In this document: positions 19,891 through 40,208 of the stretch, piece after piece
How positions within the stretch are numbered: the first letter of the stretch is position 1
Layout: each line of letters begins with the position of its first letter
Assembly (NCBI GenBank): GCA_030063045.1
Contig: JAQSEB010000164.1
Coordinates: forward strand, 496,001 to 560,000
Direction: 5' to 3'
DNA: 64,000 nucleotides
DNA from: Pratylenchus scribneri
Lineage: Eukaryota; Nematoda; Chromadorea; Rhabditida; Pratylenchidae
Translations under genes and position numbers: made by a program
The notes under the pieces: model-generated
What the model saw: only the letters and a program-made list of their open reading frames with translations
Database searches by the model: none
What the model was told of the DNA's origin: nothing

Positions 19891-20492
19891 TAATTTAACA
19901 TATATGTAGTAACTTTGTTATTCAAATTTTCGAGCATTCAATTTTCCAGCACATTTTTTTGTTGAATTTTCCAGTGGCATCAATTGCAGCACAATTGAAT
20001 CATTTTCCGGGATTAATCACAGTGCAACAGGATGGGCAACATTTTTTCGAACCGGTGCTATGTCAATTCCACAATAGGGCCAATGTGGTCAATTCCACAA
20101 TAGGGTCAATGTGAGCGTTTTCGACTTATAATAAATCAGAAACCGGTTTTAGACCCTATAAACCTTATAACATTTTGTAGATCTCATCGAGACGCATCGA
20201 TTGGTATATAATTTGTCAAGGTTTGTTCCAAAAATAAAGAGTTAAACCGTTTAAACCAATATTTTTAGGTTTTTGGTTTTAAAACTCTTTAATTTTGGGC
20301 CAAACCTTGATTCGAAAAAATGTTGCCCATCCTGTTGCACTGTGATTAATCCCGGAAAATGATTCAATTGTGCTGCAATTGATGCCACTGGAAAATTCAA
20401 CAAAAAAATGTGCTGGAAAATTGAATGCTCGAAAATTTGAATAACAAAGTTACTACATATATGTTAAATTAATCTATTACTCTGAATTTTTT
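19868..20492. mobile_element. Inverted-repeat element, arms about 180 bp
   Basis: Outer arms (AATTCAGAGTAATAGATTAA ... ACAGGATGGGCAACATTTTTTCGA) are mirrored almost perfectly at 20308-20492. The inner part is a second, degenerate inverted repeat with CATCGAGACGCATCGATTGG, and TGTCAATTCCACAATAGGG is directly duplicated at about 20060 and 20090. Confidence 0.75.
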
Positions 20493-20699
20493 TATATTTT
20501 TAATGGCCATAACTTGGCCAAAAGTGGTTGCCCAACAAAAATTTTTGCTTTTTTGAACTCAACTCGTCGAGACGCGTCGATTGGTATATCATTTGATTGA
20601 TTTCGAGTCTGGGACCTATGAACATATTTTTCCTCATTGATTTTTTGAAAACCAAAACCAACTTTGAATAATTTTAATTGCCAGCATCGAAAAAATGTT

Positions 20700-21290
20700 T
20701 AAGGATTTAATCGACATTAAAAAGGCCAGATTTCTTCTCTTTCTCATTTGTTGGCCACTTGCCCAATCAGCTGAATTGATTCACAATAACATTCAAAATT
20801 CTTAGAGATCATCCGTAATTTTTTTTCTTATTCGATCATAAAATCTCGCATGTAAAAAGATAAATCCGCATTTTTATTTTGAAGAATTCCTTAATACATG
20901 GTGGACTCTCTCAATGGCAAACATCCAAAAAAAATTGTTTAAAGAATTACATATTCGATGGCAAAAAATCCAAGCTTGCATTTTTATTTCTTTCTTTTTT
21001 TCCTCGCGCATCATTCTGCTGAACTAATTTATCCACAAACGGCTTGATCACCCGTAAATTTTATTTTCTTTCAGCATTTAATCTCACATGGAAAAGAGAA
21101 AAAGGGCATTTTTATTTTGTAAAGGGATACAATGGACATCTTTTCCTTTAATTTTTTGGCTCCGTTCGTATATATTTGTTGAATTGATTCATAATGATCA
21201 TCCAATATTTTGCGAGATCATCCGTAATTTATTCTGCATATAATCTCATATGGAAAATGGAAAAAGGTCATTTTTATTTTCTAAAAGGTT
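20700..21290 (+). repeat. Three diverged tandem copies of a ~190-bp unit upstream of the Cys-rich secreted gene
   Basis: Units at about 20730-20890, 20990-21115 and 21165-21290 share GCTGAA(C/T)T(A/G)ATT, GATCA(C/T)CCGTAA, ATAATCTCA(C/T)ATGGAAAA and GGGCATTTTTATTTT. The first copy has an ATG at 20696 opening a 37-codon frame with a hydrophobic stretch (ARFLLFLICWPLAQSAEL), resembling a signal-peptide exon left over from a duplicated gene start. Confidence 0.6.
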
Positions 21291-21355
21291 CATTTTCCCT
21301 TCATAAAATTATTCCTTATAAAATTATTAAAATTGCCTTATTAGGATCAGCAAAA

Positions 21356-22309
21356 ATGATTGGATTAATTCCTTTGCTCGCAATTTTTATTCTAAACGGT
21401 AAAAATTTTATTAAGAATTTACATAATTTAATTATAGTTCATTATGTGGGAAATACCAATGCCTTGGGCACAATCCATTCGGCAAAAGTCATTTTGAGGA
21501 AGGAAGAGAATCAACCGGTAGTGTACTATTATAGAGGTAAAAATTATTCCGGCCCTATTAATTAAGAAAATAAATTTCAATTATATGTAAAGGTTGTCTT
21601 CCCGAGGAGAGCATATTGTATACAAAAGTGCCCTGTACACCGGACAATCCCGATGAGGAATTTGCAAAACACGGTGTTGATCCAAATGCTCCTCATGAAA
21701 AATGTCCTGAATGGAAAGAAATTACACCCAAATGTCGATACACCTATTCTTATTACATTCGATCATTTCAATGTTGTGTGCCAGAAAAGGAAGGGAAACC
21801 GGATCCAGTTGGTTGGTATCGGTTTAACTCATTTATTCTTTTAGGAATTTCTTTTTATTCATCATTTTCAATGACATTTATCATTAATGTCCAAAAGGGC
21901 CTTTCCTATTCATCCTACTGTATCCCCACTTTTGTTGCCTAATCACCCCGTCATCTTATCAATCAAATATTGCCTCAATATGCCTTTTAAACTCACCTTT
22001 TTTTAACTTCATTCAAAGGCTTTTTGCTTTCAGGTTTATATCTCTTTTTCCTGTAATAAATAATAATTTAAAGTCGAGTTTGCCTTTATATCTAACCCAT
22101 CCATTGGGACACTGGGGGATTTAGATCTCCAGTGAAGGCACAGCACGAGAGCCTAGGTTAAACAACTTTAGCCCAAGATCTTTATCCTAGATTAGAGACC
22201 AATAATATACTATAAAATTTTTAGAGAAAGAAATGATGTTCAACAAAAAGGCGGCATATATAATGGCGGACATTTTGCTCCGCACAACATTGTTTACGGA
22301 TTTTGGTGA
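21356..22309 (+). CDS. Secreted Cys-rich protein
   Basis: Exons 21356-21398, 21438-21536, 21593-21821 and probably 22225-22309 (TGA 22307-22309); phases match and give about 151 aa. Exon 1 is a mini signal-peptide exon (MIGLIPLLAIFILN). Exon 3 holds the cysteines: GCLPEES, VPCTPDNPDEE, KCPEWKEITPKCRYTY, then SFQCCVPEKEG. The spaced C...C...C...CC pattern resembles small extracellular Cys modules of nematodes but I cannot name the domain. The last exon reads RNDVQQKGGIYNGGHFAPHN; its frame differs from that of the gene starting at 22233, which uses the same acceptor at 22224, so the 3' end is uncertain. Reading through 21821 instead gives an ORF to 21942. Confidence 0.7.
22085..22200. other. 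GC-balanced, possibly structured intron stretch
   Basis: CACTGGGGGATTTAGATCTCCAGTG can form a stem of about 9 pairs and is followed by GAGAGCCTAGGTT and TATCCTAGATTAGAG. Composition stands out from its surroundings. No known RNA was recognised. Confidence 0.3.
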
Positions 22310-24187
22310 AAAACAAATGAGCGAAGCACAGCACAAATATATTCGAAAATTTCGGGAATTACGCGAATTTGTTGAGCATAAAATAAAATTGAATAAAAAA
22401 TGTGTGATTTTCTTTTAATTTAATATTTAAATTTTAAAAATTAACGTCGTTAATATTTTATTTGTTAATTATCCAAGGAAGAAAATTTTTTAAACATTTG
22501 CAATGTTATTTTAAAATTTTGGTTGCATTTGGCAATATAAATTTTCGGAAATACATAGATTTTTATTAGGAATTCCTTTTTTGGGGGTATTTTAAGAAAT
22601 TTTTATCAATTTTTGGCATTTTTATAATTGAATGATTTATTATTATTTAGTACAATTCCAATCCGATTTTTCATTATGAAAATTTCCTGTGCCACTTTTT
22701 TTCCAAAACACAATTACAATTAGTGAATCTGAATTAATTATATTTAAAAAAATTATTGAAATTAATTTCTAAAATAATTAAAATTTATTTAAATTAATTT
22801 AGCGCTTCAAAAACTCGATCCTCACTCCTTTTTCAAATTTTTATCCAAAGTCAATAAAGGTGAAAAATTGATGGCACAAAACGATGTCATTTATAAAATA
22901 GTGAATGAAAAAGAGGAATCGGATGTGGACAAAATATTTGTAACAAAGTACTTGGCACAAATATGGAAAGAGAATTGAACAAATTATGCGAACATTATAA
23001 AGTTAGAATTATATTTATTAAATAATATTCTGTGTTGATTTATTCAAAAAATATCCAAAATATTACATAAAAATATTTCCTTTATAGAAAAACTACGCAA
23101 AAAACAGCAATGAATATGATGAAATTTGTAAAAAGGTGGCCACATTTTTACAATTGCAATTTCATAATACTGAAAATAGCTGGAAAGAGCATAAAAAAGC
23201 ATTGCTTGAGAAACCGAAAGAAATACTGGAGAATCCACTGAAAGCAAATGAATATGTTAAAAAATTAATAAAAGAATACAATAAAGATGAAAATCGATCA
23301 AATTATTATCGACAAACAATACCAGCGGATTTGCGATTTTTAAATGTTTTTGAGGAATTAAGGAAGATTGATACAATTCGCGAGGCTAGAAATGTGTACA
23401 GACAAACATGGATTAGGGCATTAAATTATGCACTAATGTCCATTGGTATGTTTTTTTTGGTGGATGCTGGGCATTCCATAATCAGAGTTTCCGAATATGA
23501 GCGAAAATTTCGTGCTGAAATTTTACTGATCCATAACAAGACATAATAAAAAAATTTTGACATTCTATTATTGGCCATAAAATTATTTATTTATAGATGT
23601 TTGCTATTTCTCATCTCGGATGAAATTTTGGGATGAAAAAGTAAAGAAGGCAGCCAAAGTGGGCAATTATTGCGATGGAATGTCCAATTCGGAATACTTG
23701 ATTTATTTTCTGTTGGAAATGATTAAACAAATTCATCCAAAATACAGTATGCACAGCGATGCTGTTGATGAGCCATTTCAGGCTATTCGAAAAGATGATG
23801 TGATGGTCATTGATGCAACATTGCCAAAGCAACGAGAAGAAGGTCGAGGAGGAGGAGGTAAATGTTATACTTTAAGCATTCATTTTTTATATGCCTTATC
23901 GAGAAGAAATTTTTATTGAATATTATATCAATGGAAAGCCAAAAATGTCCCTTATAATTTGACATTTTTAAACTTTTTTGAAATTTGGCATTAAAATTTT
24001 AAAGATTATTAAGATTACTGAAATAGAATTGAAGTTTGTAGAAGTGAAAATTTATATTATTTTTTATTTATATTAAAATAAATATATTAATTTATTTTCA
24101 GGCCATGGTGGTGCTGGCGGAATATTCAACGGCTGGGGTGGCAGTGGAAGCGGAGGAGGAATTGGATTTTCTTTGGGACTCTCTTGA
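22233..24187 (+). CDS. Unknown protein with Gly-rich C-terminus
   Basis: Exons 22233-22401, 22803-22939, 23088-23445, 23597-23857, 24102-24187; all phases agree and give about 336 aa. The N-terminus is helical (MSEAQHKYIRKFRELREFVE), the middle is charged (KKALLEKPKEILENPLKANEY, YYRQTIPADLRFLNVFEEL), then AAKVGNYCDGMSNSEYL, and the tail is Gly-rich (EGRGGG, GHGGAGGIFNGWGGSGSGGG). No signal peptide at this ATG; the frame is open 8 bases further to the acceptor at 22224, so either it is trans-spliced there or it continues an upstream gene. The donor at 22939 (GTAACA) is the weakest junction. Family not recognised. Confidence 0.7.
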
Positions 24188-25159
24188 TTTCCATGATGAT
24201 TTCAATGATTTCCATTTTCGGGAATGAATGTTCTGAATGGATTTTTTATTCCCTTTAAATTCTTTTTATGGTATGGTTTTTCAATTATTCTTTTTCTGGT
24301 TTTTTAAAAAAAGACTTTGTTAACATGAATTCAATTTATTTTTAATTCTTTCTTAAATTTCTTTCTTCTATTGTATAAATTTTTTGCTATTGGAATACTT
24401 CTATTATTAAATTATTTTACAATTTTATAATAGTTCATTAAAGATTTCAAAATAAAATTTCTGGGAGCTTGATAAACATGAATTAGCCAATATTTCAGTA
24501 ATTTGGCTATATTAAAATTAGTAATTGAATACGCCAAAATTTAAAATGTAATTTATACATTGTAAATTTTGCCAAAATTGGCTTAATTTGTACAAAATTG
24601 CGGTCAATAAAATTTTGCTTTTCGACAACAAAAATTACTTTTTTCTGGAAGATTTTATGTCTTTTATTGTACATTAAACTTCTTTATATTTTGTTCCAAG
24701 TTAATTTTTTTTATTCTAAAATTTAAATTTTTATTAAATTCTTCATAATTAAAAGCCATAGAAAATTGACTTGCCCCATTTACCTCCTTAAAGCATTGTA
24801 ATTGATTGGGCTATGGAGTCAAAAATCTTTTCTTATATTTGATATTAAAAGCATTTGTTCAATCTTTTATGGAGCTATAAAAATTGTCAAAATTGGTCTG
24901 ATGAAAAGTTGAGTAGTTTCTAATAAAAATCAATTATTTTTATAATTTTAATATTTGGAAAAAAGTTTAAAATTTGGAAAATAATAAGTAATCTAATTTT
25001 TAAGTTAAGAAATAAAAATTAGAATTAAAAATAATAACCAGAAAATTTATCGCACATTTCGATAAAAAAAATTCAGAGTAATAAATACATTTAACACTTA
25101 GATTGTATTTCCTTCAATTTTTCGGACTTCTTCTTCAAAATTCATCATTTTCTGATCAC
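24188..25159. repeat. Intergenic; contains dispersed segment copy 2 (24770-25090)
   Basis: 24188-24769 is AT-rich without visible genes. 24770-25090 is a diverged direct copy of 19590-19890, including TTAAAGCATTGTAATTG and GGTCTGATGAAAAGTTGA(G/T). It again begins with a decayed match to the exon end of the Cys-rich gene at 34329. Confidence 0.6.
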
Positions 25160-25360
25160 TTAAACACAGCGGCGTTCCGGACAATCGCATTTACAGTTTC
25201 CTATACATCGACAAAAGCCATCAGAACATCCACAAGAGCCAGGGATGCTTGGGGGACGAACACGTTGTGCTGCCACTATTCCTCCATCATCAGAAGAAAA
25301 CAATGACATCATTATGAAGGATGCAACCAAGAAAAGTAATGGAAAACGTAATAGAAGCAT
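25160..25360 (-). CDS. Small secreted Cys-rich peptide (66 aa)
   Basis: A single uninterrupted ORF: MLLLRFPLLFLVASFIMM at the start, a hydrophobic signal peptide, likely cleaved after about residue 32 (GGIVAAQ), followed by a ~34-residue mature region. The mature part has eight cysteines in a tight pattern: C-G-C-x4-C-x-C-x3-C-x-C-x-C-x4-C, then Val and stop (TAA read from 25162 down to 25160). The proline- and arginine-containing linker RVRPPSIPGS precedes the cysteines. Pairing would give a compact disulfide-rich peptide; antimicrobial or effector roles are guesses. It lies next to the dispersed segment that carries a relic of another Cys-rich gene. Confidence 0.75.
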   Translation of the reverse strand: MLLLRFPLLFLVASFIMMSLFSSDDGGIVAAQRVRPPSIPGSCGCSDGFCRCIGNCKCDCPERRCV

Positions 25361-25825
25361 TTTGTGTAATTTTAATTTAATTTTCAGTAAATTTTTATTA
25401 TTTATATTTAATTTGATGGATTTTACAAATTTGATGTTCCCTTTTATGTACCCCCAATTTGAAAATGAACCAAATTATTTGCTGAATAAACATAAAATAT
25501 TAAAATTTTTGTACTAAATGATTTTTAGAACAGTCTGAAACATTTGTTCTCTTAGAATATTAATTTATACTTTGTCAATAAATATTAAAATTATTTGCTG
25601 AATAAATAAAAATGCGAGTTTTTGTACAGACAGATCTTTTAGAAAATCAGACAGAGAATTATATCTATTATAGTAGTCAAGTAAAAAATCCTTCTAAATT
25701 ATATGTTCTGGATATGGAAAATCGGCACCCCACAAAATCTTTCTGCAAAATGCCTATCCAACAAAATGCCTATTGGGATTTGGGAGTAAGGAAAACCTAT
25801 ATAGAAAATCCATATAATGACTACC

Positions 25826-26022
25826 GTATTTCTTCTAATAGAAGCACGCGCTCTAATACAAGCCCACCCATGGAAAAATTTATATCAAAAATGACCTATT
25901 TTTGGGCGAAATTAAGTCGAAATAAGCATTTTTTTATTTCAAAAATTCCGTAAAGTTCACACCACGGAGGGTTTCTGAAATTTATAAGCCCTAGGAGGGC
26001 TTCAGTTAGAAGAAATATGGTA
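25826..26022. mobile_element. MITE with ACCGTATTTCTTCTAATAGAAGC ends
   Basis: Left ACCGTATTTCTTCTAATAGA and right GTTAGAAGAAATATGGTA are mirrored, about 197 bp, with inner GAGGGTTTCTGAAATTTATAAG. A second member is at 54882-55038. The ORF at 25612-25953 runs into this element and is not a gene. Confidence 0.65.
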
Positions 26023-26419
26023 TTTTTTTTTGTTTCCCCATCTGTTTATGGACAATTATTAATTGCCAATTTCATTTATCCCAAGTTTTCGACCATTCCG
26101 AATCCGATTCTGGCGTATGTTAAAGAATTTTCTTATCTATGAACCCATTTTCCAATGCGCTGAATTATATCATTATTCCTAGTACATTTTGTTGATCTGT
26201 GAAGGTCGAAAATAGAAAATCAAATTTTTTGTAGCATTTTTGCTTCACCAACATTTATCCGAAAATTAAATATGTAAAATAGGGGAAATAAATAATGCAA
26301 ATAGATGGAAGTAAAGAAGTAAAGTTAATAAGGACAGTAAGAGGGGTGGTTAATGCTTTGATGGATCATGGTGATTGGCTGGATGATCCATTAAAAAACA
26401 TATTGAATTTTCATATCAA

Positions 26420-26581
26420 CGTCCATCACAATTTCTTCTTCTTTCATCTTCAGTTCCTCAATTGTGATTGTGGTGCTTCCCATTGGAGCCTTCTATCTTC
26501 GACGAATGCATATTCCCATTGACAAGGGCGATTAGACCATCCTGGATAAAATATATTGTTAAAGTAGAGTAGGACAGAATC
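26420..26581 (+). other. Possible terminal exon of a membrane protein
   Basis: After TTTCATCTTCAG at 26452 one frame reads SSIVIVVLPIGAFYLRRMHI followed by PIDKGD and TAG (26532-26534). It looks like a membrane anchor with a basic flank. Another frame and an ATG-initiated ORF (26295-26522) overlap it. No partner exon was found; low confidence. Confidence 0.25.
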
Positions 26582-26754
26582 GGATCAAAACAGTTTCGGT
26601 TATACTAAAACCCGGTTATCTGTTCTTTAAAATAATATCGGTGAAAAATGTCGGTTCCGCTTCATCTATTTTCGATTCTGGAAAGACATAATTCTAAATT
26701 TCGGTTCGAAAATGCTTCGATTTTTTGAAACCGGAACCGACTCTGTCCTACCCT
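26564..26754. mobile_element. hAT-type MITE, 191 bp
   Basis: Ends GTAGAGTAGGACAGAATCGG and CCGACTCTGTCCTACCCTA are inverted repeats, and TTGTTAAA is duplicated on both sides (26556-26563, 26755-26762). The 8-bp duplication is the hAT hallmark. A related copy lies at about 34745-34920. Confidence 0.75.
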
Positions 26755-27101
26755 ATTGTTAAATAGTTATTCTATGAATTAGCAAGTTCCCAGGAAATTG
26801 CTAGGGCTCGGGCTAGTAATTTTAGGGAATCGATGCTCCTACTCATAGGACTAGCAGAGAATTTTTCTACCCTAATAAACCGGTTTAAAAATCGGAAAAT
26901 TTCAGTTGGCCATAATTAGGTTCAAATTTTTCGAATAGGTTTGAAATTAAAATTTCACAGGCTAAATCTATAATGTTGAGTTGAATTAACTTACTTTCGA
27001 ATTTCTACGATGCCTAAAAGCCGAGATTACAAAATTAACAAGCCCAGCTCTATTAGCTACCGGGATTAGCCAATTCCCAGAATTATTTAAAATTTTTATT
27101 T

Positions 27102-30100
27102 TTAAATGATTCCAACCTTTAAATCTCTAGAAGCTTTCGATTTAATTATGTCCACAAGTGTTTTTCTACTATAATATTCTTTATCGCAATAATCGCGAAT
27201 ATCAGCCAAGTCAATTTCTGAACGAGTAACAATCAAACGAATCTAAAATTTTTAAAATTTAGAAAAAAAATTTGTTTTCAGAAATTTATATATGATAATC
27301 TTGGTAACAAATGGCCACATTCAATATGGGTAGTAGAACTAAATTTATAAACGTCGCCATATTCTTATTAAAATGGCCAATTACCCATTGAAATAAAGTT
27401 ATATTTATGTTTAAAATCCAAAATTATTTTAGAAAAATTTTTGTAAAAATTTTGGAAAAAAAAATTAAAAAATTTGCAAACTAAATTATAAATATAAGTA
27501 AATAGTATAATTATCCTAGAAATGGAGCGTAATTTTTAATCCACATAAATTCTTTCTCAACCCACCAAATCATTTTCCGTCGGACCTATGCCGTACATCG
27601 TAACCAGGGACGGGCGCAATTGCGTTTTGCGTTTTGCGTTTTTTGCGTTATTTTTGGCCCTTTCGTTGCGTTTTCCGTTTTGCGTAAAAATGGGAAAATT
27701 AACGCAAAAAAAACGCAATAATTGGATGATTTTTAGTGGATGAAAGAGGAAAGAAGAAGGAGATAAAATGGAAAAATAATAGATTGTGTATGGAAAATTT
27801 TTGTTGAGCGGCCATTTTTAGGCCAAATTTTTCGCTGCGCGGCTGTTTTTAAGCCAAAATTTTCGCTGCGCAGCCATTTTTGACTTAAATTTTCTCCTGT
27901 CGGGGCCATTTTTGGGTCATATTTTTCGCTGCCGCGGGCAATCTTTTACGGAAAGGAGGATGGTAGCAAAATGATAGTTGTCCAACTCTGCTTGCCGATG
28001 CCGACTATGCTCGGCTTCTGGCCCATTACCCCATTTAATCCTGGCATTGTGATCCTTGCTTCCTTTTAATTAACATTATCCCCCTTTATCTGGCTTAATC
28101 CCATGCAACACATGATCTCGGGCTTATTATTCCACTTGCCTTCAGCACGCTTCCCCTTGACCTCAGCACCACAATCTTTTAATTCATGATGGAAAAATGG
28201 AAAAAAATCCAATAAAGAAAATTTAAATAATGGAAGACAATTGAATTATGAAAATTTAAATTTCTGAATAAAATTAATTTTTTTTGAAAATTGCGTTTTG
28301 CGTTTTGCGTTTTTTGCGTTATTTTTAGCCCTTTCGTTGCGTTTTCCGTTTTGCGTAAAAAAAATTTTGAACGGAATTGCGTTTTGCGTCTTGCGTTCAA
28401 CGGCTTTGGCACTTGCGCCCGTCCCTGATCGTAACTACATGTTCCATCGCTTGTTCGATTCGGGTGGCAAAAAACCACGGTTTGTAGTCGAAAATCCACA
28501 AAGGTGCCATAAGTGCCTTATACAATTTATCACTGCAAATATGAAAAAAAGGGAAAATGAATTGTACTGTTGCTATACGAAAATTTACTCTGATCCATCT
28601 TTAAACATTGTTTTCATATCCGAATAAATGGCATTCTTTATCTTTGTTAACTCATCATATTTTTTCGCCACCTATGATGTTAAATAAAATGATAAAATGC
28701 AAATTCTAAATATAATTTTTTAGCTTGAATATTAATTTCAAAAAATTTTTTTAATTATATTAAAACTAAAATTCGTCTTACCAAACTCATTTGTGATGGA
28801 TTCTGTTTGATCCACAATTCAATAAATTTCTTTCTATCAAAATTATATCTACTTTCCAGCAGTTGTTGGGCAACCTAGAAAAAAGCATAATTGATATTAC
28901 TTCAGCGACTATGTATTATGAAATCAATTGAAAAAAACAAAGGCAAAGCAACCTCAAAAATGAATCCAAAGCGTCAGACAAAGTAAATAGGAGTAGGATT
29001 TTTGAGTAACTTCAATAAAATTTTTGTAACTGTTCAAAAATAATAATTTTTATACCAAAAGATAGAGGACACTTTTTGCCTTGGAAAGTATAATTATAAA
29101 AATTTTAACTACTCTTTAAAAATTTTATAAGAGCGACTTAAACGCTGAATCCTATGCCAACTCATTCAAATTCATTTGAATCGTCGGATCGGAAGTCAGT
29201 GCCGGAATTAACCATATAAAATTTTTTCTAATCGTCAGAAAATTTTCAAATTTTTCATATCCACCAATATACTCTAATTTTTGGTATAATAATTATTTAT
29301 TTGGATGACTAGAAAAGATTTTTGAACGTACCCAAATTCCCATTACTGTTGGGTACTGACACCGACACGTCGGATTTATTTGTGTAATCATAACTTTAGT
29401 AGGAATTAACGAAGCCCACCTTCTATTAGAAGCTCACCCTCGACTTAAACACTATACCTCTTGACATAATGAACTTTCTTTTTTATTGCATTTCTTAATG
29501 CCAATGGGCTCTCTATAAAAAAACGCTTAAGTTTGTTCGAAAAAGTCTACAAATAAAAAAGTTAGACCCAAAATTTTGCCCATTTTTGGCGGCAAAATTT
29601 AAAAGCCCATGGTCTTCTAATAAAATTAATACGTACATTTACTCTTTTTATTTATAGATTCAAAATTAGACCTTTTTTGCTTTTATCGGATCTGTTTTGG
29701 TGCTTTCATCACGTTCAGCAGAAGTAAGATATTTGTAGATTATTTGGAAATACTCATGGAAACGACTAATATAATAATTAAATTCGCTAAGAGCAGGAGC
29801 TTTCAGGAATTTTTTGATCTGTTCATTGCTGCGAGTGTTCAAGATCCTAAAAAGTTGAAGGATTTAAATTTGTCAAACAGTAAAATAAAATCTTACTCCG
29901 ATAAGATATAAGAAGTCGGATCCGGCTTTAAACAAAACAAAATAATTTTACATTAAATGTTAAAAATATAAAAAAAGAACATTAAATTTTCTGAACCATT
30001 AACGGTTCAAAAACCGGTTTCGAAAATTTAATACTTTCGAATTACCAGACAAAATTATAGTCCATCCGACGAGTATCAATCAATGAGTTAATCACGAATT

Positions 30101-32186
30101 CGCCATCGGTACAGTAGAAAATCGAGAAATAAAGAAATTGTAACCATTTTTGTCATAAGTTATTCCTTTATTTTTTCATTTTATGTTAAACCGATTACAG
30201 ATTCATTCTCAGCACTCCGAGGTGCGTCGATTTATTTTATAATCAACAAAAAATGCCTAAGTTCATTTTTTTAAACCGGTTTGTGAACCGAAAATCTTTC
30301 ATCCTATAAAGTTAATGTAAAATTAATCCAAAATACGGATTCCAAATTATCGAAATTCCCTAAAAATATCCTTTTTAGCAAAAGAAAATAAAAACTTTTT
30401 TTTGCAAAAAATGTGGGGTACAAACTATAATATTACTTAAAATGACCAAAAAGATTATAGCACTTCATTGGTTTTTTATTCCTCTAAAATAACATATTTT
30501 TTTGAGATAAATACACATTTTGGTTTTATGAAGTTTTAATTATTACTAAAATTGTCATTGTATTCCGTTACTTTTTGGCCAGTAAGTAGGAAAAAAAAAC
30601 CAAAAAAAATGAAGCAAAAAGAGCTGAAATCCCAAAAACATACAAAAAGAGCAATCCTTAATTGTCGGATATCATATTCTGCTGGTTCCATTACCAATGC
30701 CTCAAGCAGTAATTTGGAACCAGTATGTATCCATCTTGATCCAATCAAAATACCACACAGATCTTTCTTGTACTTTTCTTTCAAAACTGTGAGAGCCTAG
30801 AAAAATGAAGCAATTTCATTAAGCCATGTTTACACAAATGGATCCGATGCATCGGAATAAAAAGGAGTAGGATTTTTGAGTACAAACATAAAATTGTTTT
30901 AATCGTACAAAAAAATAAATTTTTTTGCCAAATAATAGAGCAGACTTACTGCATCGGATAAGATAAATTATAGAGAATTTTCCGATGATGACTCCGGCGA
31001 TTCAAATGAATTTGCATTTTGAATTGTCTGAGTTGGCCTTATAAAATTTTTATAGAGCTGTTAAAATTTTTAAAATTATAGGGAAAAATAAAATTAAAAA
31101 AATTTTTTATAGAGCAGTTAAAATTTTAAAAATACACTGAAAAAAATTAATAAATTTTTTTGGGAAAAAGAGGGGGATGGAAGGGGGTATCTCTACTATT
31201 ATCCAAAAAAAGAACAACCTGTTGACGTTGCTCATTAGTATATTTTACGAGTTCCATGACCATCAAATCTTTTTTCCAATTCTCACTTTTCCAAAATTGG
31301 AAAACAGATTTTTCACACATCGCATCATTCAGTATTTTTGCCGTTTTTTCTTTATCAAATGTGGGATTTGTGAAAATTGTTGGTTTTGCTGCAAAAAGTT
31401 TGATTATATATTATGAGAAACATTATCAAATTTGCCATTTTAAAGGAACATTTTTTTACCCAAAAAGTATTTTTTTAATACAAAAAAGTCATTTTTTATT
31501 TAAAAATTACCCAAAATTAGTTTTTGATTTCTAATTAATCCGAAAATTTTTTTACCCAAAAAATATTTTTTACACAAAAAAAGTAATTTTACTTAAAAGT
31601 TGCCGAAAAGTAATTTTTGATTTGATATATGGTTTGATCAAAATTAAAGGACATTAAACCATTTAAAACGTTTTCCTGTTTTTGTTTTAAATACTAATAA
31701 AAAAAGATTACGGGGAGAGCGGGGAATCAGGGTGCGGGGAACGTGGCAGGGAATTTTTCCAAAATCCTTGCGAGACCCCGTCCAACGGGGATCCTAATTA
31801 GGGCTCAGGGTTAAGTACAGGGCAAGATGGGATTTGGGGCTAGGTAATCTTAAAGAAGTCTGATTTGGCCAACTTATATGGCATCAAAAAAATGATTATT
31901 TTTCGACACCAAAGATTTGGGTAAATTAATTCCTTTTTTGGGTAAATTAATACACTTCCTTTTCGATAATTTATCCGATATACGACTGTTTTTTTTGATT
32001 TTATCAATCACACAAAAATTGAGTCATAGTTCTAATTTTATCTAATAAAAATGTACCCGCTACTTTCTTTTCAAGATTAGCTTCATCCACGGCGGCTGGT
32101 GCATTGTGATTATTGCACATTGCGATAGGCCATAACAAACACAATAAAGACAGAAAAAATGGTAATAGACAGCAGAACAATTTCAT
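27102..32186 (-). CDS. Secreted annexin-like protein, coding exon split by a hAT MITE
   Basis: Exons (- strand): 32057-32186, 31219-31388, 30644-30796, 29897-29925, 29672-29846, 28782-28874, 28589-28671, 27566-28532, 27102-27242. Leaving out the 831-bp insertion, all phases match and give 369 aa. Exon 1 is a signal peptide (MKLFCCLLPFFLSLLCLLWP). Four annexin repeats follow: FDKEKTAKILNDAM...YTNEQRQQ (1), MEPAEYDIRQLRIAL...EILNTRSNEQIKK (2), VAQQLLESRYNF...VAKKYDELTK (3), GIGPTENDL with IRLIVTRSEIDLADIR (4). The G-x-G-T-D calcium motif is lost or altered in every repeat, so calcium-dependent membrane binding is doubtful. Signal-bearing annexin-like proteins are known effectors of cyst nematodes. 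Exon 8 is interrupted at 27605-28427; read-through meets a stop 13 codons in. Haplotype may be null, or the element may be spliced out. Confidence 0.88.
27605..28427. mobile_element. hAT-type MITE (823 bp) inside an annexin-like exon
   Basis: Terminal inverted repeats CAGGGACGGGCGCAA / TTGCGCCCGTCCCTG (15 bp) and an exact 8-bp target duplication ATCGTAAC (27597-27604 and 28428-28435). Subterminal GCGTTTTGCGTTTTTTGCGTTATTTTT blocks occur at both ends. No transposase ORF, so it is non-autonomous. Confidence 0.93.
28960..29390. repeat. Intronic repeat, GGAGTAGGATTTTTGAGTA family
   Basis: AGGAGTAGGATTTTTGAGTA near 28990 recurs near 30865 (element about 30835-31040), with TTATAAAATTTTTATAGAG-like sequence and CAACTCATTCAAATTCATTTGAA / TTCAAATGAATTTGC in both. 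Non-coding, within annexin introns. Confidence 0.5.
29990..30440. repeat. Decayed relative of the 14626-15245 palindrome
   Basis: AACGGTTCAAAAACCGGTTTCGAAAA at the left and AAACCGGTTTGTGAACCGAAAA at the right, with central CATAAGTTATTCCTTTATT, follow the order of the palindrome in the 7TM intron but with many differences. Confidence 0.5.
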
Positions 32187-32299
32187 TTATAATTCGATAT
32201 TTTCTTAATTGAATTGAGGATTAATTTATGAATACTATTTTTTGTTTCAAAAAAGTTTTCTTTTGGTATTAAAAAATTATATTTTTACCACCATTAGAG

Positions 32300-32600
32300 T
32301 TTTTTCTTCTATAAAATCAGAAACCGGTTTTAGACCACATAAACCTTATACGATTTTGTAGAACTCGTCGAGACCCATCAATTGGCATATAATTGTCAAG
32401 GTTTGGACAAAATTAAAGGGAATTAAACCTTATAAACTATATTTTAATGATTTTGGTTTTAAACTCTTTAATTTTGGCACAAAACTTGACATTTTAATTT
32501 TATTACATATACCAATCGATGCCCCTAGATGTTATCTACAAAATAAATAGTCTAAAATCGGTTTTTAATTTATTAGAATCAAAAACTCTTTTCTTGGTAA
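32300..32600. repeat. Inverted repeat, CGAGACGCAT family
   Basis: AATCAGAAACCGGTTTTAGACC ... TTTTGTAGAACTCGTCGAGACCCATCAATTGGCATATAATTGTCAAG on the left is mirrored by CCAATCGATGCCCCTAGATG...AAAATCGGTTTTTAATTTATTA. Related to about 20110-20310. Confidence 0.55.
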
Positions 32601-32682
32601 AAATAAGCAATTTTAGTCCCAAAAAAATATTTTCCAATTTTTTCTGCTGGTGTTTAGTAGAGGAATAAGGGTCAAGTAATGA

Positions 32683-32943
32683 TTGAAAAGGGATAAGGGA
32701 ATAGAGGATTTAATAAAAATGAAAATATCCAGCATGAAATTGGCAGATATATATGCACTAAAATTAGAAGGCTTGGCCTGTTTGAGGCCCATTACAATCC
32801 CAAATCCATATGACATTGTCATATGCCCATTATGTATAATGCTTGATATAATTTATGCGAATAATCAAATGGATAAATTTAGAGTAAAAAGCATAATTTT
32901 CCATTCGTTTACGGATTTCTTGATGAGGGAATATAAATTTTGA
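32683..32943 (+). other. Unassigned 86-codon ORF
   Basis: Begins MKRDKGIEDLIKMKISSMKL and contains a CPLC pair. No ATG-proximal features, splice partner or recognisable domain. The - strand is also open here, so coding status is doubtful. Confidence 0.2.
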
Positions 32944-34202
32944 TTTGACAATTCCGCTTGAGAATTTTACGAGAAATAAAATGTATGGTTGATTTTGATC
33001 AATCGAAATTTTATTCTTTTCTAAAGGGTATATTTTTATTCTTATTTTTATTCTTATTTGTGTTTCTTTGCAAATCTATGGCCAAGAAATATAGAAAATC
33101 AATATCCACACTCCTTTGCTATTGAAGATTAAGATTTGAATTAAATGGATTCCGTTTCTGCGGGATGAGTGGATGGCGGATGATAATTTTGGACAGGTTT
33201 TTTCTTTTACTCGCTTTAACTTTTTTTACGGTATTCCGATTTCAAATTCTCTTCTATTTTAAAAATTATTTTATTCAATTTTTGAATTTTTAAATGCATA
33301 AAAAATTCCAAGGAATTTTAAAAATTTTATCGCGATGTCGAATAATTTTAGATTATAAATACGAATATATTTTTATTTAATTTTATTTGACCATCTTATT
33401 AATGGAATATAAAAACATTTGCGATTTTGACCCAACTATATTTAAAATTAAATAATTAAATTAATATTTTTTCTTAAAAATTTTATATTTTCGGCAGAAT
33501 TATTTTAAAGATACTCATTTCTCCATATTACTATTTATTCAATATGTATTCAAATTAGGGTTCAGCGGTATCGGGATACCGGTCGGTATTAATACCGAAA
33601 TACCGGGGTCTGGCCAATACCGATACCGGTTTTGCCAATATCGCTACCGACCCCGGTAATACCCTTACCGATTTTCCAGCTCGGTATTAATCGGTATTGA
33701 CAAGCACCCCATAAAATGGCATTTTTGTCCAAATTTTAAATTTTTTTCTTGAAGAAATTGAAATGTAAAGAAATATATTGAAATTGATTTTAGAAAATGC
33801 ATTGGATTTAAAATTTTATTTTTGCAAGAAAATAAAATTTTAAATTATTTTTTGTATTTTTAAAGTAAAAAATTGATTTTATAATTTTTTTTACGATTTT
33901 TTTTTATCAAATACCGAAATACCGACTAATACCGATACCGACTAATGCCAAATACCTATACCGGATACCGAGTAGGCTGATACCGGCCAATACCGTTACC
34001 GACTTTGGTCCCAAATACCGATACCGCTGAACGCTAACTCAAATCCAACAAATAATATTTAGGATCCATTATCAAATAGAGATCGAAAAATGACAAAACT
34101 TTAAAATTAGTTGATCAAATTTTTCATCAAATTCTGAATCAAGATCATTTCATTATATTATTTCTCCATGGCATTTTTATTCATTGGAATTTGGAAGGTC
34201 GA
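32944..34202. other. Gene-free stretch with a hAT MITE
   Basis: AT-rich; the only structure seen is the element at 33556-34036 annotated separately. Confidence 0.5.
33556..34036. mobile_element. hAT-type MITE, 481 bp
   Basis: Ends TAGGGTTCAGCGGTATCGG and CCGATACCGCTGAACGCTA (one mismatch), rich in ATACCG/CGGTAT repeats on both sides. The flanks ATTCAAAT (33548-33555) and ACTCAAAT (34037-34044) form an 8-bp target duplication with one mismatch, so this is an older insertion. Confidence 0.75.
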
Positions 34203-36453
34203 CTAGAAAATTTGTTTAGAATTTTCATAGAAGCCATTCAGCAAATCCGTCGATGATGCTTTTTTGCAATAGGCTTTGGCCTGAAATTATCAAATAAATT
34301 TCAAAATAATTTGGAAAAATATGTTTACTTCTGCTCCATTTGCCTTAAAGCATTGTAATTGGGCTCCACAAGCGCATGAATGTTCGCAATTTTCTTCTTC
34401 ATTCCTATCATAAAAAGTGCACACAGCTTCCATAGAATTGATGGAATTGAGTTTTTTGCAGCAATGACCTTAATTAAATATTAGTAAATTTTGAGGAGAA
34501 GGAGTCCTTTATATAATTTCGGTCAGTCTTTTCCATTTATTCAGCAATTTTATTGGTCATAGCTCATCAGAAACTAATTGACCATTTTATCTATTCTAAA
34601 GTGAATTTTATAGATCAAATTGTTGATTTTTCAATAGAATGTGGAACTGCCGAAATCATTAAGATTTGGCAAAGTTATGGCCGTAAATTAAAAAGCTTTT
34701 TTTTCAGTTTTTGATTATAATTTGATTCTGGGTTATTAATTGTAAAGTAGGAGAAAGTCGGTTCTGATTCAAAAAATCGATGCATTTTAGAAGAATTTTC
34801 GCTTTTTACAATCGAATAAGGGAAAACAGAACCGAAAACCGACATTTTTCAAGAATAGAAAACCAGGTTTTATAACCGATACAGTCTAGGACCGATTCTG
34901 TTACTCTATGTAATTACCATGTCACAGATTTTTTTTAATTATTATAATTCAACTGCTTAACCAAACCATGACCCTCAAAATCACTGATGGATATTGAAAT
35001 AACCGAATTAATTGACTATTCCTCAAAGGTTAAACTGACCAGGAATGCAATCATTGTGTGTTTTGCATGTATTTCCTTCATATCCTCGCCGCTTAATTTC
35101 CACTTTATGAACTTCACCATTAATGTTTGGCGCCAATGTTGTTGTTGAATTCTGGAAATGGGAGAATTATTGAGTGAATTGATTTATTTTTGCAAACATT
35201 TTTCTTTTCCTTCTTTTTTGAATTTTTGCTTTTGTTTTCTCCATTTTGAATGGCCAATTTCTTCAAATTTTTCCTTTGTTCTCGAATTTTCTCTTCCATT
35301 TCCTTCATCCGTTCTTCAATTCGTTCGAATTTTGAATGCATTTTCTTTCGCAATTTCCGAATTTCTCGATTCAGCGTCCTAGAATATGCAATTTAATAAG
35401 CTTGCTCGTTCTTTTGGTCATAGCTAAACAAGGAAATAAACAATTCAGAAAGGCGATAGGCCTTTCGGAAAACCTAAATAGCCTCTATAAATGGCTTTCT
35501 ATTTTTTAGAATATAAATTAATTTATAAATTAAGCAGCTTTTCTTCAATAAATTCGAGATTTTTAAGTTCAAAGAGGTATATTTGTTTCAGTTCGATTCA
35601 TAAAATTTAAATAAGTCAGATTATAGAGGACATTTTGGGCTTCCCAAGAGTAATTTTTCCGGATATTTTTTTTCCATTACTTGAGCACTAGTCAAAAATA
35701 ATGGGCCATGATAATAAAATATCACCTACCGGAATTCAACGGAACTGCTGCTGGACTCGATTTTTGAAGTTTGTTTTTCTAAAGATAAAAATTCTTTAAT
35801 TTAATTATTTTTATGTATTCTTTGCTACCTTTCCTTTTCCTTCTTCTTTCCTGTTTAATTTCATTTGCAAGGAATTTTACCTCGTCCAGCAATTCCTTTA
35901 ATCTTACAATCTTTCCTGCAGTTTCATTTTTAGAAGAAGGAATTGAAGGCGACATCTTAAAACATAATTTTTATTAAATACCAAAAATTATGGAATTTAC
36001 TAAAAATTTTCCTGTCAAGATGCTCTTTATGGCCATATAAAAAAGGGAAATGTTAAATCAGGTTTGGCGTTTGGAACAAAAATAAAATTCTTAAGATTTA
36101 ATTAGACTTGAAATAAGAATTTAGGCAGAATAGAGTTAAAAAATTGAGTCTGATATCATCAAGTTTTATGGTCATTAAAATGTTTAATTTTCGACTTTAA
36201 CATTTATGGTTAAATCTTAAATCCATTGATTTTATGGATAAATTTTCATGTGATAATTTAATAAAACTTAAATTAATAAATAAATAAAAAATTTTATCAC
36301 CTTTTCTAATTGTGGATTCCCTCCTATAGAGGAAGAAATATTTGTTAATGCCATAATTGAGCCAGCCGTTAAAGAAATTACGCCTTTGTTGTTTAATGAA
36401 AGAATAAAAACAATGAATAGTAATTCAGCTAATTTATGCAATGATAATAACAT
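34203..36453 (-). CDS. Secreted coiled-coil protein with colipase/Dickkopf-like Cys domain (279 aa)
   Basis: Exons (- strand): 36301-36453, 35829-35955, 35730-35778, 35198-35378, 35040-35151, 34329-34468, 34203-34280 (TAG). Every phase matches; length 279 aa. Residues 1-27 are a signal peptide (LAELLFIVFILSLNNKGVIS core). Residues about 60-165 are a charged, Lys/Glu-rich coiled coil (HSKFERIEERMKEMEEKIR, KNSKKKEKKN). The C-terminal ~75 residues have ten cysteines: GNTCKTHNDCIPGHCC, then VCTFYDRNEEENCEHSCACG, QLQC and AYC. The C-x5-DC-x4-CC start, C-x-C middle and L-x-C follow the disulfide plan of colipase/Dickkopf/prokineticin-type modules (family knowledge, resemblance only). Probably an extracellular ligand or effector. 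Fragments of exon 6 are scattered at 19602 and 24790. Confidence 0.88.
34740..34920. repeat. Second copy of the AGTAGGACAG/TCGG MITE family
   Basis: AAGTAGGAGAAAGTCGGTTC...CGAAAACCGACATTTTTC...GACCGATTCTGTTACTCTATG parallels 26564-26754. Lies in intron 5 of the Cys-rich gene; ends decayed. Confidence 0.5.
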
Positions 36454-37349
36454 TGTTGTCAATTAATTTTTAGTCAACAAAGAGGTAGAATAATCTAAAA
36501 AATATTATTATAGAATTTAAAATAATATTATATTATCCCAAGGAAAGGAAGAAAATTTTCAGGATTTCAATATTTTACAAAATTTAATGATATTTTAGAA
36601 GCTCATTTTACAATATATTAATAACTTTTTCTCTATAAGGAAGGGCAAAGGGTAGCTTAAACAAAGGAAAAATAGTATGAATAAAAAAAGGAACAAAATT
36701 TGGAAAGCAATAAATTAAATCGCTTAATAGATTTTAATTTTACGGCCAAAAAAGCAAAATATTCCAAAAAAGGGCTCCGTTTTTTGGCCATAAATTTGTG
36801 GCCATTATTTTTTTTATCAATTATATTAATATCAAAATGCTAAATAGAAAAATAGCTTCTGAAATTTTCCAAAATATTGACAAATGCGCAAAAATGGGTA
36901 GCCAAGGGAAAAAGAAAATTAATCGCGTTCAAATTCGAATGACCACCATCTGCTGCTATTGCCTCCTTCAATCCCTAATTATACCAATATGTTTGAATAG
37001 GAAACATCCTCTTTTTTATGAGTTTGTTTGGACAATGGAAAATGGACATTCGAGTGGTGTTTTTCTCATCCCCTCTCCACTCTCCATCCTGCATATGTGA
37101 ATTTTCAAATGAGCAATGGCTGATGGAGGATGAAGCATAGCGGAAGCTGTGCCCAGTACTGAGGGCGTTGGCCCAATTATTTTATTGATTCCCTTCCCTG
37201 TTAGTAGGGGACACTTGAGAAGAGTGTCAAATAAGCAAAAAATGGAAATTGTGGTGTATCGTCAAAAAATCATTTTGTCACGCAAATGAATAATATTATT
37301 TGGTGGATTCAAATGTTATATTTTCATTATCATTAAAATTTTATTAATC
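36454..37349 (+). other. Spacer with a possible receptor fragment (36837-37100)
   Basis: From ATG 36837 a frame reads MLNRKIASEIFQNIDKCAKM then KKKINRVQIRMTTICCYCLL and QSLIIPICLN before a polar stretch and TGA at 37098-37100. The basic stretch followed by a hydrophobic helix recalls the loop-3/TM6 part of a chemoreceptor, but no adjoining exons were found. Likely a relic. Confidence 0.25.
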
Positions 37350-39449
37350 ATGGAAGCTATTTATATATTTTTTGGCATGGGAATATTTGCAGAATGGATG
37401 TCCTATTTCTTGGTGAATCGAAAACACATTTTCTTAATTAATCGAAAACACATTTTTCTTAGTTCATCGAAAACAAATTTTTTTTAATTCATCGAAAAAC
37501 ACATTTTTCTTAGTTAATAGGAAACACATTTTTCTTAGTTCATCGAAAACACATTTTTTTTAATTCATCGAAAAACACATTTTTCTTAGTTAATAAGAAA
37601 CACATTTTTCTTAGTTAATCGAAAACACATTTTTCGTAGTTACTCGAAAACACATTTTTCTTAGTTAATCGAAAACACCTTTTTCTTAGTTAATCGAAAA
37701 CACATTTTAATTAGTTAATCGAAAAAAACATTTTTCTTAGTTAATCGAAAAACACATTTTTCTTAGTTAATCGAAAACACATTTTCCTTACAATTAATTG
37801 ATAAAATTTGTTCACATATTTCAAATTACTATTTTTATAATATTTATTATAATGATAATAGTGATGACTCAAAATTTTATTTTCAATCATTTTGTTAGAG
37901 TTAATTCTTTCTACAGTTTTCATCTCATTTTTTACAAAAAAAATAAAAAAAATATACACGGGATTATTATTACACCCTAATATAAGAGAAGTTACTTTTT
38001 AAAATTGATAAAAAAAATGGCATATTTTATAAGATATTTTGAGCTTTCTATTCCAATGCTATGTCTAATGTCTAATTTCTGGATAAATTATTCCTCGCTA
38101 AAAATATAGTCACTCAAAAGAACTATCTAGGTACGGAAATGGGAAATGGCGGGATTTAAAATGAAAAATCAGCCCACTTTCCTCTTTTTCTCCCTTATGC
38201 CACTTTGGCTACATTGTGCTTTTATAATAACTCGTCAAAAGAAAGAACAAATTTTGATGTTTTTGTTACCAAATTTGAGATAATGCAGTTTAGTTCTATC
38301 CATTTGAAATTAATTTTATTTTTTGGAAATTAGGAAGTTGTGACCTTAAAATATTTTAAAATGTTTTCACTATGAATTATCGAAATTTAAAGTGGTTTTT
38401 TTTTGTCATAATTGTATCAATTTTTAACCTAAATAAAATTAATATAAATCTTTAATTTGATATAAAAAATATTGAAATTAATTCAATCTTGTTGAAAAGG
38501 CGACAAGTTGGTTTTTGTTCTCTTATCATTCCTCATCACAGATTTTGGCTTTCAACCGTTGTTTGGATCTTTTGGCACCGAAAATTTCCGGAATGCTTTT
38601 CTCCGGATTTCGAGTCTATTTTTGGCTCTCAATTTGCACAATATATGCTCTTTGCTATGCCATTTTCCTGAAGCCACCTGTCTATAACAGTCTCATTTTC
38701 GGTTGGCAACTTAACCCATTCTTTGGATACGGTCCCAATTTGAATGGTGAATTCCCCATCCCACTCGTGTTAGTCCAATCTGCGCTCATTCTATTATAAC
38801 AAAAGATCTAATTTAGAACTTTTTTCCATGATTCTGCCGTTGTCATTTTATTCCCCATCTTTTATGGCCTATTTGCCATTGTAATGTGCATCAAAACGCG
38901 TTCATTTGGGCTGGGCCAAGCCATCCCTGGACCCCAAAAAATGGTCAGAGCCGATTTTAATATATGTTTCATTTTTAATTACATTATTTGAAGGCATTTT
39001 TACAAGTTTTTTTGATTTCCGCAATGAATGCATTCACTTGTTTCACCTATATATCCATGGATTATTATATTCCATCTCAATGGGTAGTCACAATGGCACA
39101 AATTTCATGGCATATTTTTTTGAATTTATAATTAATTTTAATTAAATTTTGATTAAATTTAAAATTAATTTTAAAAATTTTTTATTAAATTTAAAATTAA
39201 TTTTAATTAAAATTTATAATTAATTTTAATTAAATTTCTATCAAATTACTAATTAATTTTTTTAATTTGTTCTATAGGTTCCATGTACATGGCTTTCCTC
39301 CAGTCATTTATTTGGCATTGAACAAAACAATTCGCCATGATTGTCGAATGATGTTTTATAAAGTTTTGTCTAACAAAATTCAACATTTGCATGGGGTCAC
39401 CGTCATGGTAACCCAACAGAATATTAATGCTGCTACAATTCAACAATGA
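37350..39449 (+). pseudogene. Srt-type chemoreceptor, damaged
   Basis: Exon 38542-38768 encodes ILAFNRCLDLLAPKISGMLF and ends GWQLNPFFGYGPNLNGEF; exon 39278-39449 encodes FHVHGFPPVIYLALNKTIRH. These are hallmark stretches of the nematode Srt family. Exon from 38817 starts TFFHDSAVVILFPIFYGLFA in phase with 38768, but the frame breaks at the A6 run 38936-38941: QKMV in the first frame versus QKWSEPILIYVSFLITLFEG one base over, which is the TM6-like continuation. The donor before 39278 also fails in phase. A putative first exon is 37350-37412 (MEAIYIFFGMGIFAEWMSYFL). TM2/TM3 were not found. Either a pseudogene or a base-calling error in the A run plus missed exons. Confidence 0.72.
37420..37795. 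repeat. 25-bp minisatellite (TTAATCGAAAACACATTTTTCTTAG)
   Basis: About fourteen head-to-tail copies of a 25-bp unit, AGTTAATCGAAAACACATTT plus TTCTT, with small variants. It fills the space after the first putative Srt exon. Confidence 0.9.
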
Positions 39450-39739
39450 TGAAAAATATCAAACATACTGTTCTTATAATTTTTTGACACTGAAAAATTC
39501 CAGTCTTATCTCAATTTAAAATTTCTTTAAAGAAATGATATTAGTACACATAAAATCCTTAGAATTTATCCAAAACTTCTTGTTGAAGAATGAACATTTT
39601 TTAGGCCATAAAATTGGACAATAATCAAGTTTTTTGACATATGTATAAATTTATAAATATTTATTTAGAATTTACCTTGACCTTAAACTTTCAAATCTTG
39701 GAGATCTATGCTGATTGAATTATAATCGGAAATAAATTT

Positions 39740-39950
39740 TTTTTAAATTAATCGAACGAAAACACATTTTTTAGTTAATATTTTTTTAATCGAAAACTCA
39801 TTTTTCTTAGTTAATCGAAAACACATTTTTCTTATAGTTCATCGAAAACACATTTTTCCTAGTTAATCGAAAACACATTTTTCTTGGTTAATCGAAAACA
39901 CATTTTTCTTTGTTAATCAAAAACAATTTTATTTCTAATCGAAACATTTT
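39740..39950. repeat. Second block of the 25-bp minisatellite
   Basis: About seven copies of the same TTAATCGAAAACACATTTTTCTTAG unit, about 300 bp past the Srt 3' end. The Srt gene is therefore flanked or spanned by one satellite family. Confidence 0.85.
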
Positions 39951-40208
39951 ATTGACAGTCAGAATTAATGAAAATGAGCATCTCTAATATGATAGTAGCG
40001 AGAATGCACCTTGCGAATGTTTTGGTTATAATTATTTTTGTTTGTCTTGCATTTATGTATATAAAAGATTTATTAACGTTTTTGTTTAACCAAAATTAAA
40101 ATATTCAATTGTTAAAAATAAAATGTCAAAAATTCCATTTATCGAATAAATTTAAATTAAAATAAAAACATTAAATCAATCATCTTCACCATTCCCAAAA
40201 TTCAATTA

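What the first reader, a model, noticed from the sequence alone, without database searches (positions are those of the whole stretch)
27566..28532. hAT MITE sits inside a coding exon of a secreted annexin-like gene
The exon reads annexin repeat 4 on both sides of an 823-bp element with 15-bp inverted ends and an exact 8-bp target duplication. Removing element plus one duplicate restores the frame and both splice sites (GIGPTENDL directly before IRLIVTRSEIDL). As written, a stop follows 13 codons into the junction. The gene is otherwise intact, so the insertion looks recent: a presence/absence polymorphism of a putative effector, or an element processed as an intron.
Basis: partly seen in the sequence, partly recalled or inferred. 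Interest (0 to 1): 0.88.

Follow-up and report, generated by a model that had tools for sequence, protein, structure and literature searches.

The report
Mobile element breaks duplicated annexin-like gene
A small, recently inserted mobile DNA element interrupts an extra copy of a secreted annexin-like gene in what is probably a root-lesion nematode; this is a clean but ordinary case of a transposon breaking a duplicate gene.

Summary
Window 27605-28427 is an 823-bp non-autonomous element with 15-bp perfect inverted ends (19 bp with one mismatch) and an exact 8-bp target duplication, inside exon 7 of a minus-strand annexin-like gene. As written, a TGA follows at 28397-28399. The element is multicopy: 25 end-to-end matches including itself; 9 of 10 inspected copies have exact 8-bp duplications. 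Its closest copies differ by 1.7-1.8%, so the insertion is young.

The context is new. At the three homologous loci found in the same assembly, the flanks of an ~8.37-kb block (25670-34038) carrying the whole annexin gene lie only 106-131 bp apart. No allelic copy was found, so the 'empty sister haplotype' cannot be sought here. Diverged paralogs on C112, C23 and C97 have the equivalent exon without the element. Size and contig number match the published Pratylenchus scribneri assembly.

Best reading: a hAT-type MITE disabled a non-allelic duplicate of a secreted annexin-like gene. Clean removal as an intron is unlikely; no GT-AG pair spans the element exactly. Polymorphism is untested. New member of a known kind; low to moderate interest.

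The parts
27605..28427 (.). 823-bp non-autonomous hAT-like element (MITE)
   Evidence: 25 end-to-end family matches including itself; 9 of 10 inspected copies with exact 8-bp TSD
27605..27619 (+). terminal inverted repeat, low-coordinate end (CAGGGACGGGCGCAA)
28413..28427 (-). terminal inverted repeat, high-coordinate end
27597..27604 (.). target-site duplication ATCGTAAC, copy 1
28428..28435 (.). target-site duplication ATCGTAAC, copy 2
27618..27690 (+). 73-bp subterminal direct repeat, copy 1 (99% identical to copy 2)
   Evidence: D4
28289..28361 (+). 73-bp subterminal direct repeat, copy 2
   Evidence: D4
28397..28399 (-). TGA stop met inside the element by the annexin frame
32054..32186 (-). 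exon 1, signal-peptide exon (MKLFCCLLPFFLSLLCLLWPIAMC...); 3' edge approximate
   Evidence: homologous exon MELFCLLPFILCLLCLLPIAIC... upstream of the C112 paralog
31215..31391 (-). exon 2, annexin repeat 1 part; 3' edge approximate
   Evidence: 64% identical over 58 positions to C112 paralog
30648..30795 (-). exon 3, repeats 1-2 part; 3' edge unresolved
29670..29847 (-). exon 4 (ILNTRSNEQIKK...); 5' phase unresolved
28781..28874 (-). exon 5
   Evidence: similar in C112, C23, C97 paralogs
28587..28671 (-). exon 6
   Evidence: similar exon in C112 paralog
28428..28532 (-). exon 7, part upstream of the element (includes one copy of the duplication)
27566..27604 (-). exon 7, part downstream of the element (VTMYGIGPTENDL)
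27102..27242 (-). exon 8, second half of annexin repeat 4 and stop
25670..34038 (.). block carrying the whole annexin-like gene, absent at three homologous loci (C45, C41, C233)
33553..34037 (.). second multicopy repeat lying at the right edge of the block
   Evidence: 49 match rows; 40 of 180 candidates scored; inverted ends, I4

Best explanation
A hAT-type MITE jumped, recently, into exon 7 of a non-allelic duplicate of a secreted annexin-like gene. Shown: the element, its duplication, its family, the interrupted reading frame, the absence of the whole gene block at three homologous loci, and element-free equivalent exons in diverged paralogs. Inferred: the transcript carries a premature stop in the second-to-last exon. 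It is then either degraded or makes a protein lacking the second half of annexin repeat 4, so this copy is probably dead while diverged paralogs remain. The insertion was probably mobilised in trans by one of the genome's hAT transposases; which one is not known.
For: Exact TSD and perfect 15-bp ends. Multicopy family: 25 end-to-end matches, with 40 of 969 candidates scored. 9 of 10 inspected end-to-end copies have an exact 8-bp TSD. 15-bp end: 33 exact genome matches against 0 in the control. hAT dimerisation domains present: 150 matches from 150 scored of 373 candidates. Divergence from the two nearest copies 14/816 and 14/791. Stop inside the element. Paralogs on C112, C23 and C97 read past the equivalent place without an element. 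Block absent at three of the three homologous loci found. The window copy shows weak constraint: pN/pS 95% range 0.57-0.94 over 277 codons against the C112 paralog.
Against: No transcript data were available, so loss of function is inferred. No autonomous partner with the same ends was found: none of the 150 hAT matches listed (223 candidates unscored) lies within 10 kb of an exact 15-bp end (compared by eye), and one lone end that I fetched had no transposase frame. One of 10 copies lacks a TSD (L013). Against the C23 and C97 paralogs, over 101 codons each, the pN/pS range includes 1 (0.44-1.07 and 0.47-1.03), so prior constraint is not firm. Open exons would also fit a gene that is still used in part.
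Confidence: 0.75

Rival explanations
1. The element is spliced out as an intron, as reported for maize Ds1, so that the gene still works.
For: Net added length is a multiple of three. In the first 100 sense-strand bases of the element, GT occurs at offsets 15, 26 and 55. Titles of papers on Ds1 splicing seen in the reference list of PMC3260210 (passages).
Against: No GT-AG pair spans exactly element plus one duplicate: the sense-strand end is CTG. Only one AG lies in the last 120 bases of the element, 57 bases from its end.
Confidence: 0.07
2. The gene makes a shortened secreted annexin-like protein that ends within the element and may have its own role.
For: All upstream exon pieces are open and the signal exon is conserved. 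pN/pS upper bound 0.94 against C112.
Against: The missing part is the C-terminal half of repeat 4, normally needed for the annexin fold (general knowledge). If the element is retained, the stop lies far upstream of the last splice junction, so decay of the transcript is expected. No evidence of conservation of such a form was sought or seen.
Confidence: 0.15
3. The duplicate was already a pseudogene, and the MITE landed in dead DNA.
For: The copy is non-allelic and diverged (dS 0.50, omega 0.66 against C112); pN/pS ranges against C23 and C97 include 1; the exon 3-4 phase could not be resolved.
Against: No stop or frameshift was seen in the exon pieces. The exon 3-4 puzzle is shared with the C112 paralog. 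Against C112, pN/pS is below 1 at the 95% level.
Confidence: 0.2
4. The interruption is an assembly or amplification artefact.
For: The matching published library was ultra-low-input (PMC10138993 abstract).
Against: A chimera would not make an exact 8-bp duplication beside perfect element ends, a signature present in 9 of 10 inspected copies.
Confidence: 0.02

Closest known systems
hAT-superfamily MITEs (non-autonomous, Ds-like elements)
   Same: 8-bp TSD, short inverted ends starting CAGGG (recalled as hAT-typical), under 1 kb, no long coding frame, multicopy, subterminal repeats
   Different: The partner transposase with the same ends was not found; only 3 of the 9 exact TSDs fit the recalled Ac-type nTnnnnAn consensus (read by eye)
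Nematode annexin-like effectors Hs4F01 (Heterodera schachtii) and Ha-annexin (H. avenae)
   Same: Annexin repeats in a plant-parasitic nematode; a role in the host proposed for the known ones (PMC4388550 abstract; PMC5632807 passages)
   Different: This family is diverged (the 8 database hits have 24-31% identity to the C112 paralog) and has its own signal-peptide exon; no host activity known. The known effectors were not compared by sequence here
Polymorphic MITE insertions in Meloidogyne incognita (PMC8288018, passages)
   Same: MITE insertions in or near genes of a plant-parasitic nematode, some polymorphic among isolates
   Different: There polymorphism was checked by PCR, the detailed case lying in a 3' UTR; here a coding exon is hit and polymorphism is untested
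Maize Ds1 elements spliced from exons
   Same: hAT-type element in a coding exon
   Different: No exact GT-AG boundary here and no transcript evidence; only titles of the Ds1 papers were seen

Membership tests
hAT-type MITE | 8-bp target-site duplication | tested here: met
   Exact in the window; 9 of 10 inspected end-to-end copies
hAT-type MITE | Short terminal inverted repeats shared by the family | tested here: met
   15-bp perfect ends; 33 exact genome matches, 0 in control
hAT-type MITE | Short, non-coding, multicopy | tested here: met
   All three sense frames contain stops; 25 end-to-end matches
hAT-type MITE | Related hAT transposase bearing the same ends in the genome | tested here: inconclusive
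   hAT domains present (150 of 373 candidates scored) but none of those listed within 10 kb of the exact ends by eye; one lone end checked, no transposase frame
Annexin (PF00191) | Annexin repeats by sequence profile | tested here: met
   C112 paralog E 6.6e-23; window exon 8 alone sub-threshold, 17.3 of 25 bits, but aligned to repeat 4 of solved annexins
Annexin (PF00191) | Four complete repeats with calcium-binding loops | tested here: inconclusive
   Only pieces were examined; GIGPTEND resembles the loop (recalled motif), and paralogs lack this segment
Secreted nematode annexin effector | Signal peptide | tested here: inconclusive
   Hydrophobic leader by eye, conserved in the C112 paralog; no predictor was run
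Secreted nematode annexin effector | Gland expression and action in the host | not testable with these tools
   No expression or host data held
Element spliced as an intron (Ds1-like) | Usable GT-AG boundaries at the element ends | tested here: not met
   No exact GT-AG pair; internal cryptic sites not excluded

The most novel reading that the evidence does not exclude
The MITE family is still active in this nematode. The interrupted and uninterrupted states of this locus-specific secreted annexin-like gene segregate among worms, so mobile elements are currently remodelling a secreted, possibly host-directed gene family that is itself present at some loci and absent at their homologues.
Probability: 0.25. 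Interest if true: 0.45.

Novelty: new member of a known kind. Interest (0 to 1): 0.25.

Why it matters
It documents, in what is probably a root-lesion nematode, how gene duplication and a young MITE family together give and take away copies of a diverged secreted annexin-like gene. It supplies a defined locus for asking whether such insertions are polymorphic. By itself it is an ordinary transposon knock-out of a duplicate.

Tried and rejected
Empty allele in the same genome: searches with both flanks (40 of 250 candidates scored, 15 of 15) returned only the window itself at 100%. In one search the next gene match is the C112 paralog (71% and 79% DNA identity in two pieces); the other rows fall on a repeat at about query 512-721. 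In one search the other rows include a 71% match to the C97 paralog, a 52-base match at C82:2069523-2069574, which overlaps an annexin match, and otherwise short or intronic fragments. So no allelic or near-identical copy was found.

Clean transposon insertion as the source of the 8.37-kb block: the junction alignments show no TSD and a replaced spacer of 106-131 bp, so I rejected a simple transposition of the block. Polarity (gain in the window lineage or loss in the others) stays open. On the left flank the three other loci are closer to each other (3.5-9.7%) than to the window (14.9-15.6%). On the right flank C45 is slightly closer to the window (10.4%) than to the other two (11.8% and 11.9%).

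Autonomous partner: one lone end at C21 was fetched (L061); no left end, no TSD partner and no transposase frame; three other lone ends not covered (C60, C90, C226) were not fetched. Rfam (gathering threshold) and tRNA scans of the window gave nothing. The SL1 search scored 50 of 98,799 candidates and gave 41 matches, all below the curated cut-off, best 54.4 of 75 bits; this is only a hint of a nematode. A first dN/dS script used a wrong frame for exon 6 of the C112 paralog; one search replaces its C112 figures. Pfam scans of five other window frames gave no match above a cut-off.

Full report
WHAT IS THERE. Window 27605-28427 (823 bp) has inverted ends CAGGGACGGGCGCAA, perfect over 15 bp and 19 bp with one mismatch. 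It is flanked by ATCGTAAC on both sides (27597-27604, 28428-28435). It contains a 73-bp subterminal direct repeat, two copies 99% alike, and stops in all three sense frames.

THE ELEMENT FAMILY. A whole-genome DNA search scored 40 of 969 first-look candidates and listed 55 match rows, 25 of them end to end including the window copy. Twelve loci were cut out. Ten span the element end to end, and 9 of those 10, the window's own included, have an exact 8-bp duplication; L013 does not; L014 and L015 are partial and were not judged. The 15-bp end occurs 33 times in the genome and its reversed control 0 times. The nearest copies, on C145 and C1, differ from the window copy by 14/816 and 14/791 substitutions and from each other by 4/785; the seven other copies compared differ by 4-14%. 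hAT dimerisation domains are common in the genome: 150 matches from 150 scored of 373 candidates. None of those listed lies within 10 kb of an exact 15-bp end (compared by eye), and a lone end on C21 had no transposase frame. The element is therefore hAT-like by its ends and duplications, with its transposase partner unknown. That CAGGG ends are hAT-typical is recalled, not tested.

THE GENE. The gene runs on the minus strand from a signal-peptide exon at about 32186 to a stop at 27102. Eight exons were recognised by comparison with a paralog on contig C112. The C112 paralog has a homologous signal exon and adjoining DNA (72% over 241 positions). A protein put together from the exons of that uninterrupted paralog (signal exon left out) matches Pfam Annexin at E 6.6e-23, and its 8 database hits, from 1150 candidates, carry the annexin domain at 24-31% identity. 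For the window gene itself, six of nine pieces were scanned apart. Only exon 8 matched Annexin, at 17.3 bits, below the cut-off of 25. The same exon aligns by sequence with repeat 4 of solved annexins, best E 4.1e-5 to annexin VI. The junction between exons 3 and 4 could not be resolved in phase; the C112 paralog has the same feature, so it is not evidence of damage, but it leaves the claim 'otherwise intact' unproven.

THE INTERRUPTION. Exon 7 reads from 28532 to the element and again from 27604 to 27566, where a GT donor follows; AG acceptors precede exons 7 and 8. The net added length is 831, a multiple of three, but the frame meets TGA at 28397-28399 inside the element. On the sense strand the duplication begins with GT, but the element ends with CTG, so the element plus one duplicate has no canonical GT-AG pair. 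Within the last 120 bases of the element there is a single AG, 57 bases from its end. Clean splicing is thus unlikely; cryptic splicing is not excluded. The two parts of the exon were not joined here.

Searches with the outer flanks (window 34000-40000, 40 of 2064 candidates scored; window 20000-26000, 40 of 5569 scored) found three homologous loci: C45, C41 and C233. Local alignment shows that window 25666-25669 and 34039-34042 lie 106-131 bp apart in all three. The whole block of about 8.37 kb with the annexin gene is missing there. The junction alignments show no duplication at its edges, and the short spacer of the other loci is missing in the window. A second multicopy repeat ends at the right edge of the block. 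On two flanks the window differs from the other loci by 10-16%, and the others from each other by 3.5-12%; which state is ancestral stays open. The gene is therefore a locus-specific copy, and no allele was found in the assembly in which the site could be seen without the element: searches with the two gene flanks returned no near-identical second copy.

PARALOGS. C112, C23 and C97 carry the equivalent of exon 7 without the element. There the stretch corresponding to MYGIGPTE is absent and a short intron follows. The C97 copy may carry a frameshift near the end of that exon; this was not pursued. Against C112 the window gene has 56% amino-acid identity over 277 aligned codons, dS 0.50, dN 0.33, and pN/pS 95% range 0.57-0.94 (one search had one exon in a wrong frame). 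Against C23 and C97, over 101 codons each, the range includes 1 (0.44-1.07 and 0.47-1.03). Constraint on the window copy was thus weak and is not firmly shown. Among the three paralogs, in three exons (101 codons), pN was 0.008-0.027 and pS 0.094-0.213, which is stronger constraint.

ORGANISM. The assembly has 227,248,964 bases in 276 contigs. A paper on Pratylenchus scribneri reports 276 contigs and 227.24 Mb, from 500 worms, purged of haplotigs (PMC10138993; abstract and passages). I infer this species from the numbers; it was not checked by sequence. The purge would have removed an alternative allele. The paper's k-mer analysis pointed to a diploid genome, with many duplicated single-copy markers in the assembly, so the three homologous loci may be old duplicates and not alleles.

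MECHANISM. Most likely a transposase supplied in trans moved the MITE into exon 7 after the four homologous loci had separated (element divergence 1.7-1.8% against 10-16% for the flanks). The result is a premature stop in the second-to-last exon and loss of the end of annexin repeat 4. Insertion and stop are shown; loss of function and the trans-acting source are inferred.

KNOWN OR NEW. MITE insertions within or near genes, some polymorphic and checked by PCR, are reported for Meloidogyne incognita (PMC8288018, passages). Annexin-like effectors are reported from cyst nematodes (PMC4388550, abstract and outline; PMC5632807, passages) and an annexin transcript from P. penetrans (PMC4684371, passages). 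hAT superfamilies are listed as widespread in plant-parasitic nematodes, P. scribneri being among the genomes used (PMC11118728, passages). I saw no report of this locus in the listings of the searches; none was aimed at this locus alone, and the library is open-licence papers only. This is a new member of a known kind.

Noticed in passing
window 25670-34038; L058, L059, L060: The whole annexin-gene block is absent at three homologous loci, with a short spacer in its place and no duplication at its edges.
   Followed up: yes
window 33553-34037: A second multicopy repeat with inverted ends sits at the right edge of the block.
   Followed up: partly
G000:C142:1382762-1408266: One copy of the MITE is split into three collinear pieces by ~4.0-kb and ~20.7-kb insertions, with 3- and 6-base overlaps; the larger has the size of a Polinton/Maverick (recalled). 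Not fetched.
   Followed up: no
window 25160-25474, minus strand: A small secreted-looking cysteine-rich reading frame (leader, then CGCSDGFCRCIGNCKCDCPERRCV) lies beside the block in a flank shared with the three homologous loci.
   Followed up: no
window 37406-37790: A tandem repeat unit with about 90% identical arrays on many contigs.
   Followed up: no
window 27794-27931: 31-bp subrepeats inside the MITE resemble sequence at 56301-56401 and in other contigs.
   Followed up: no
L035 (C97), near 4040: The equivalent exon of this paralog may carry a frameshift compared with C112 and C23.
   Followed up: no
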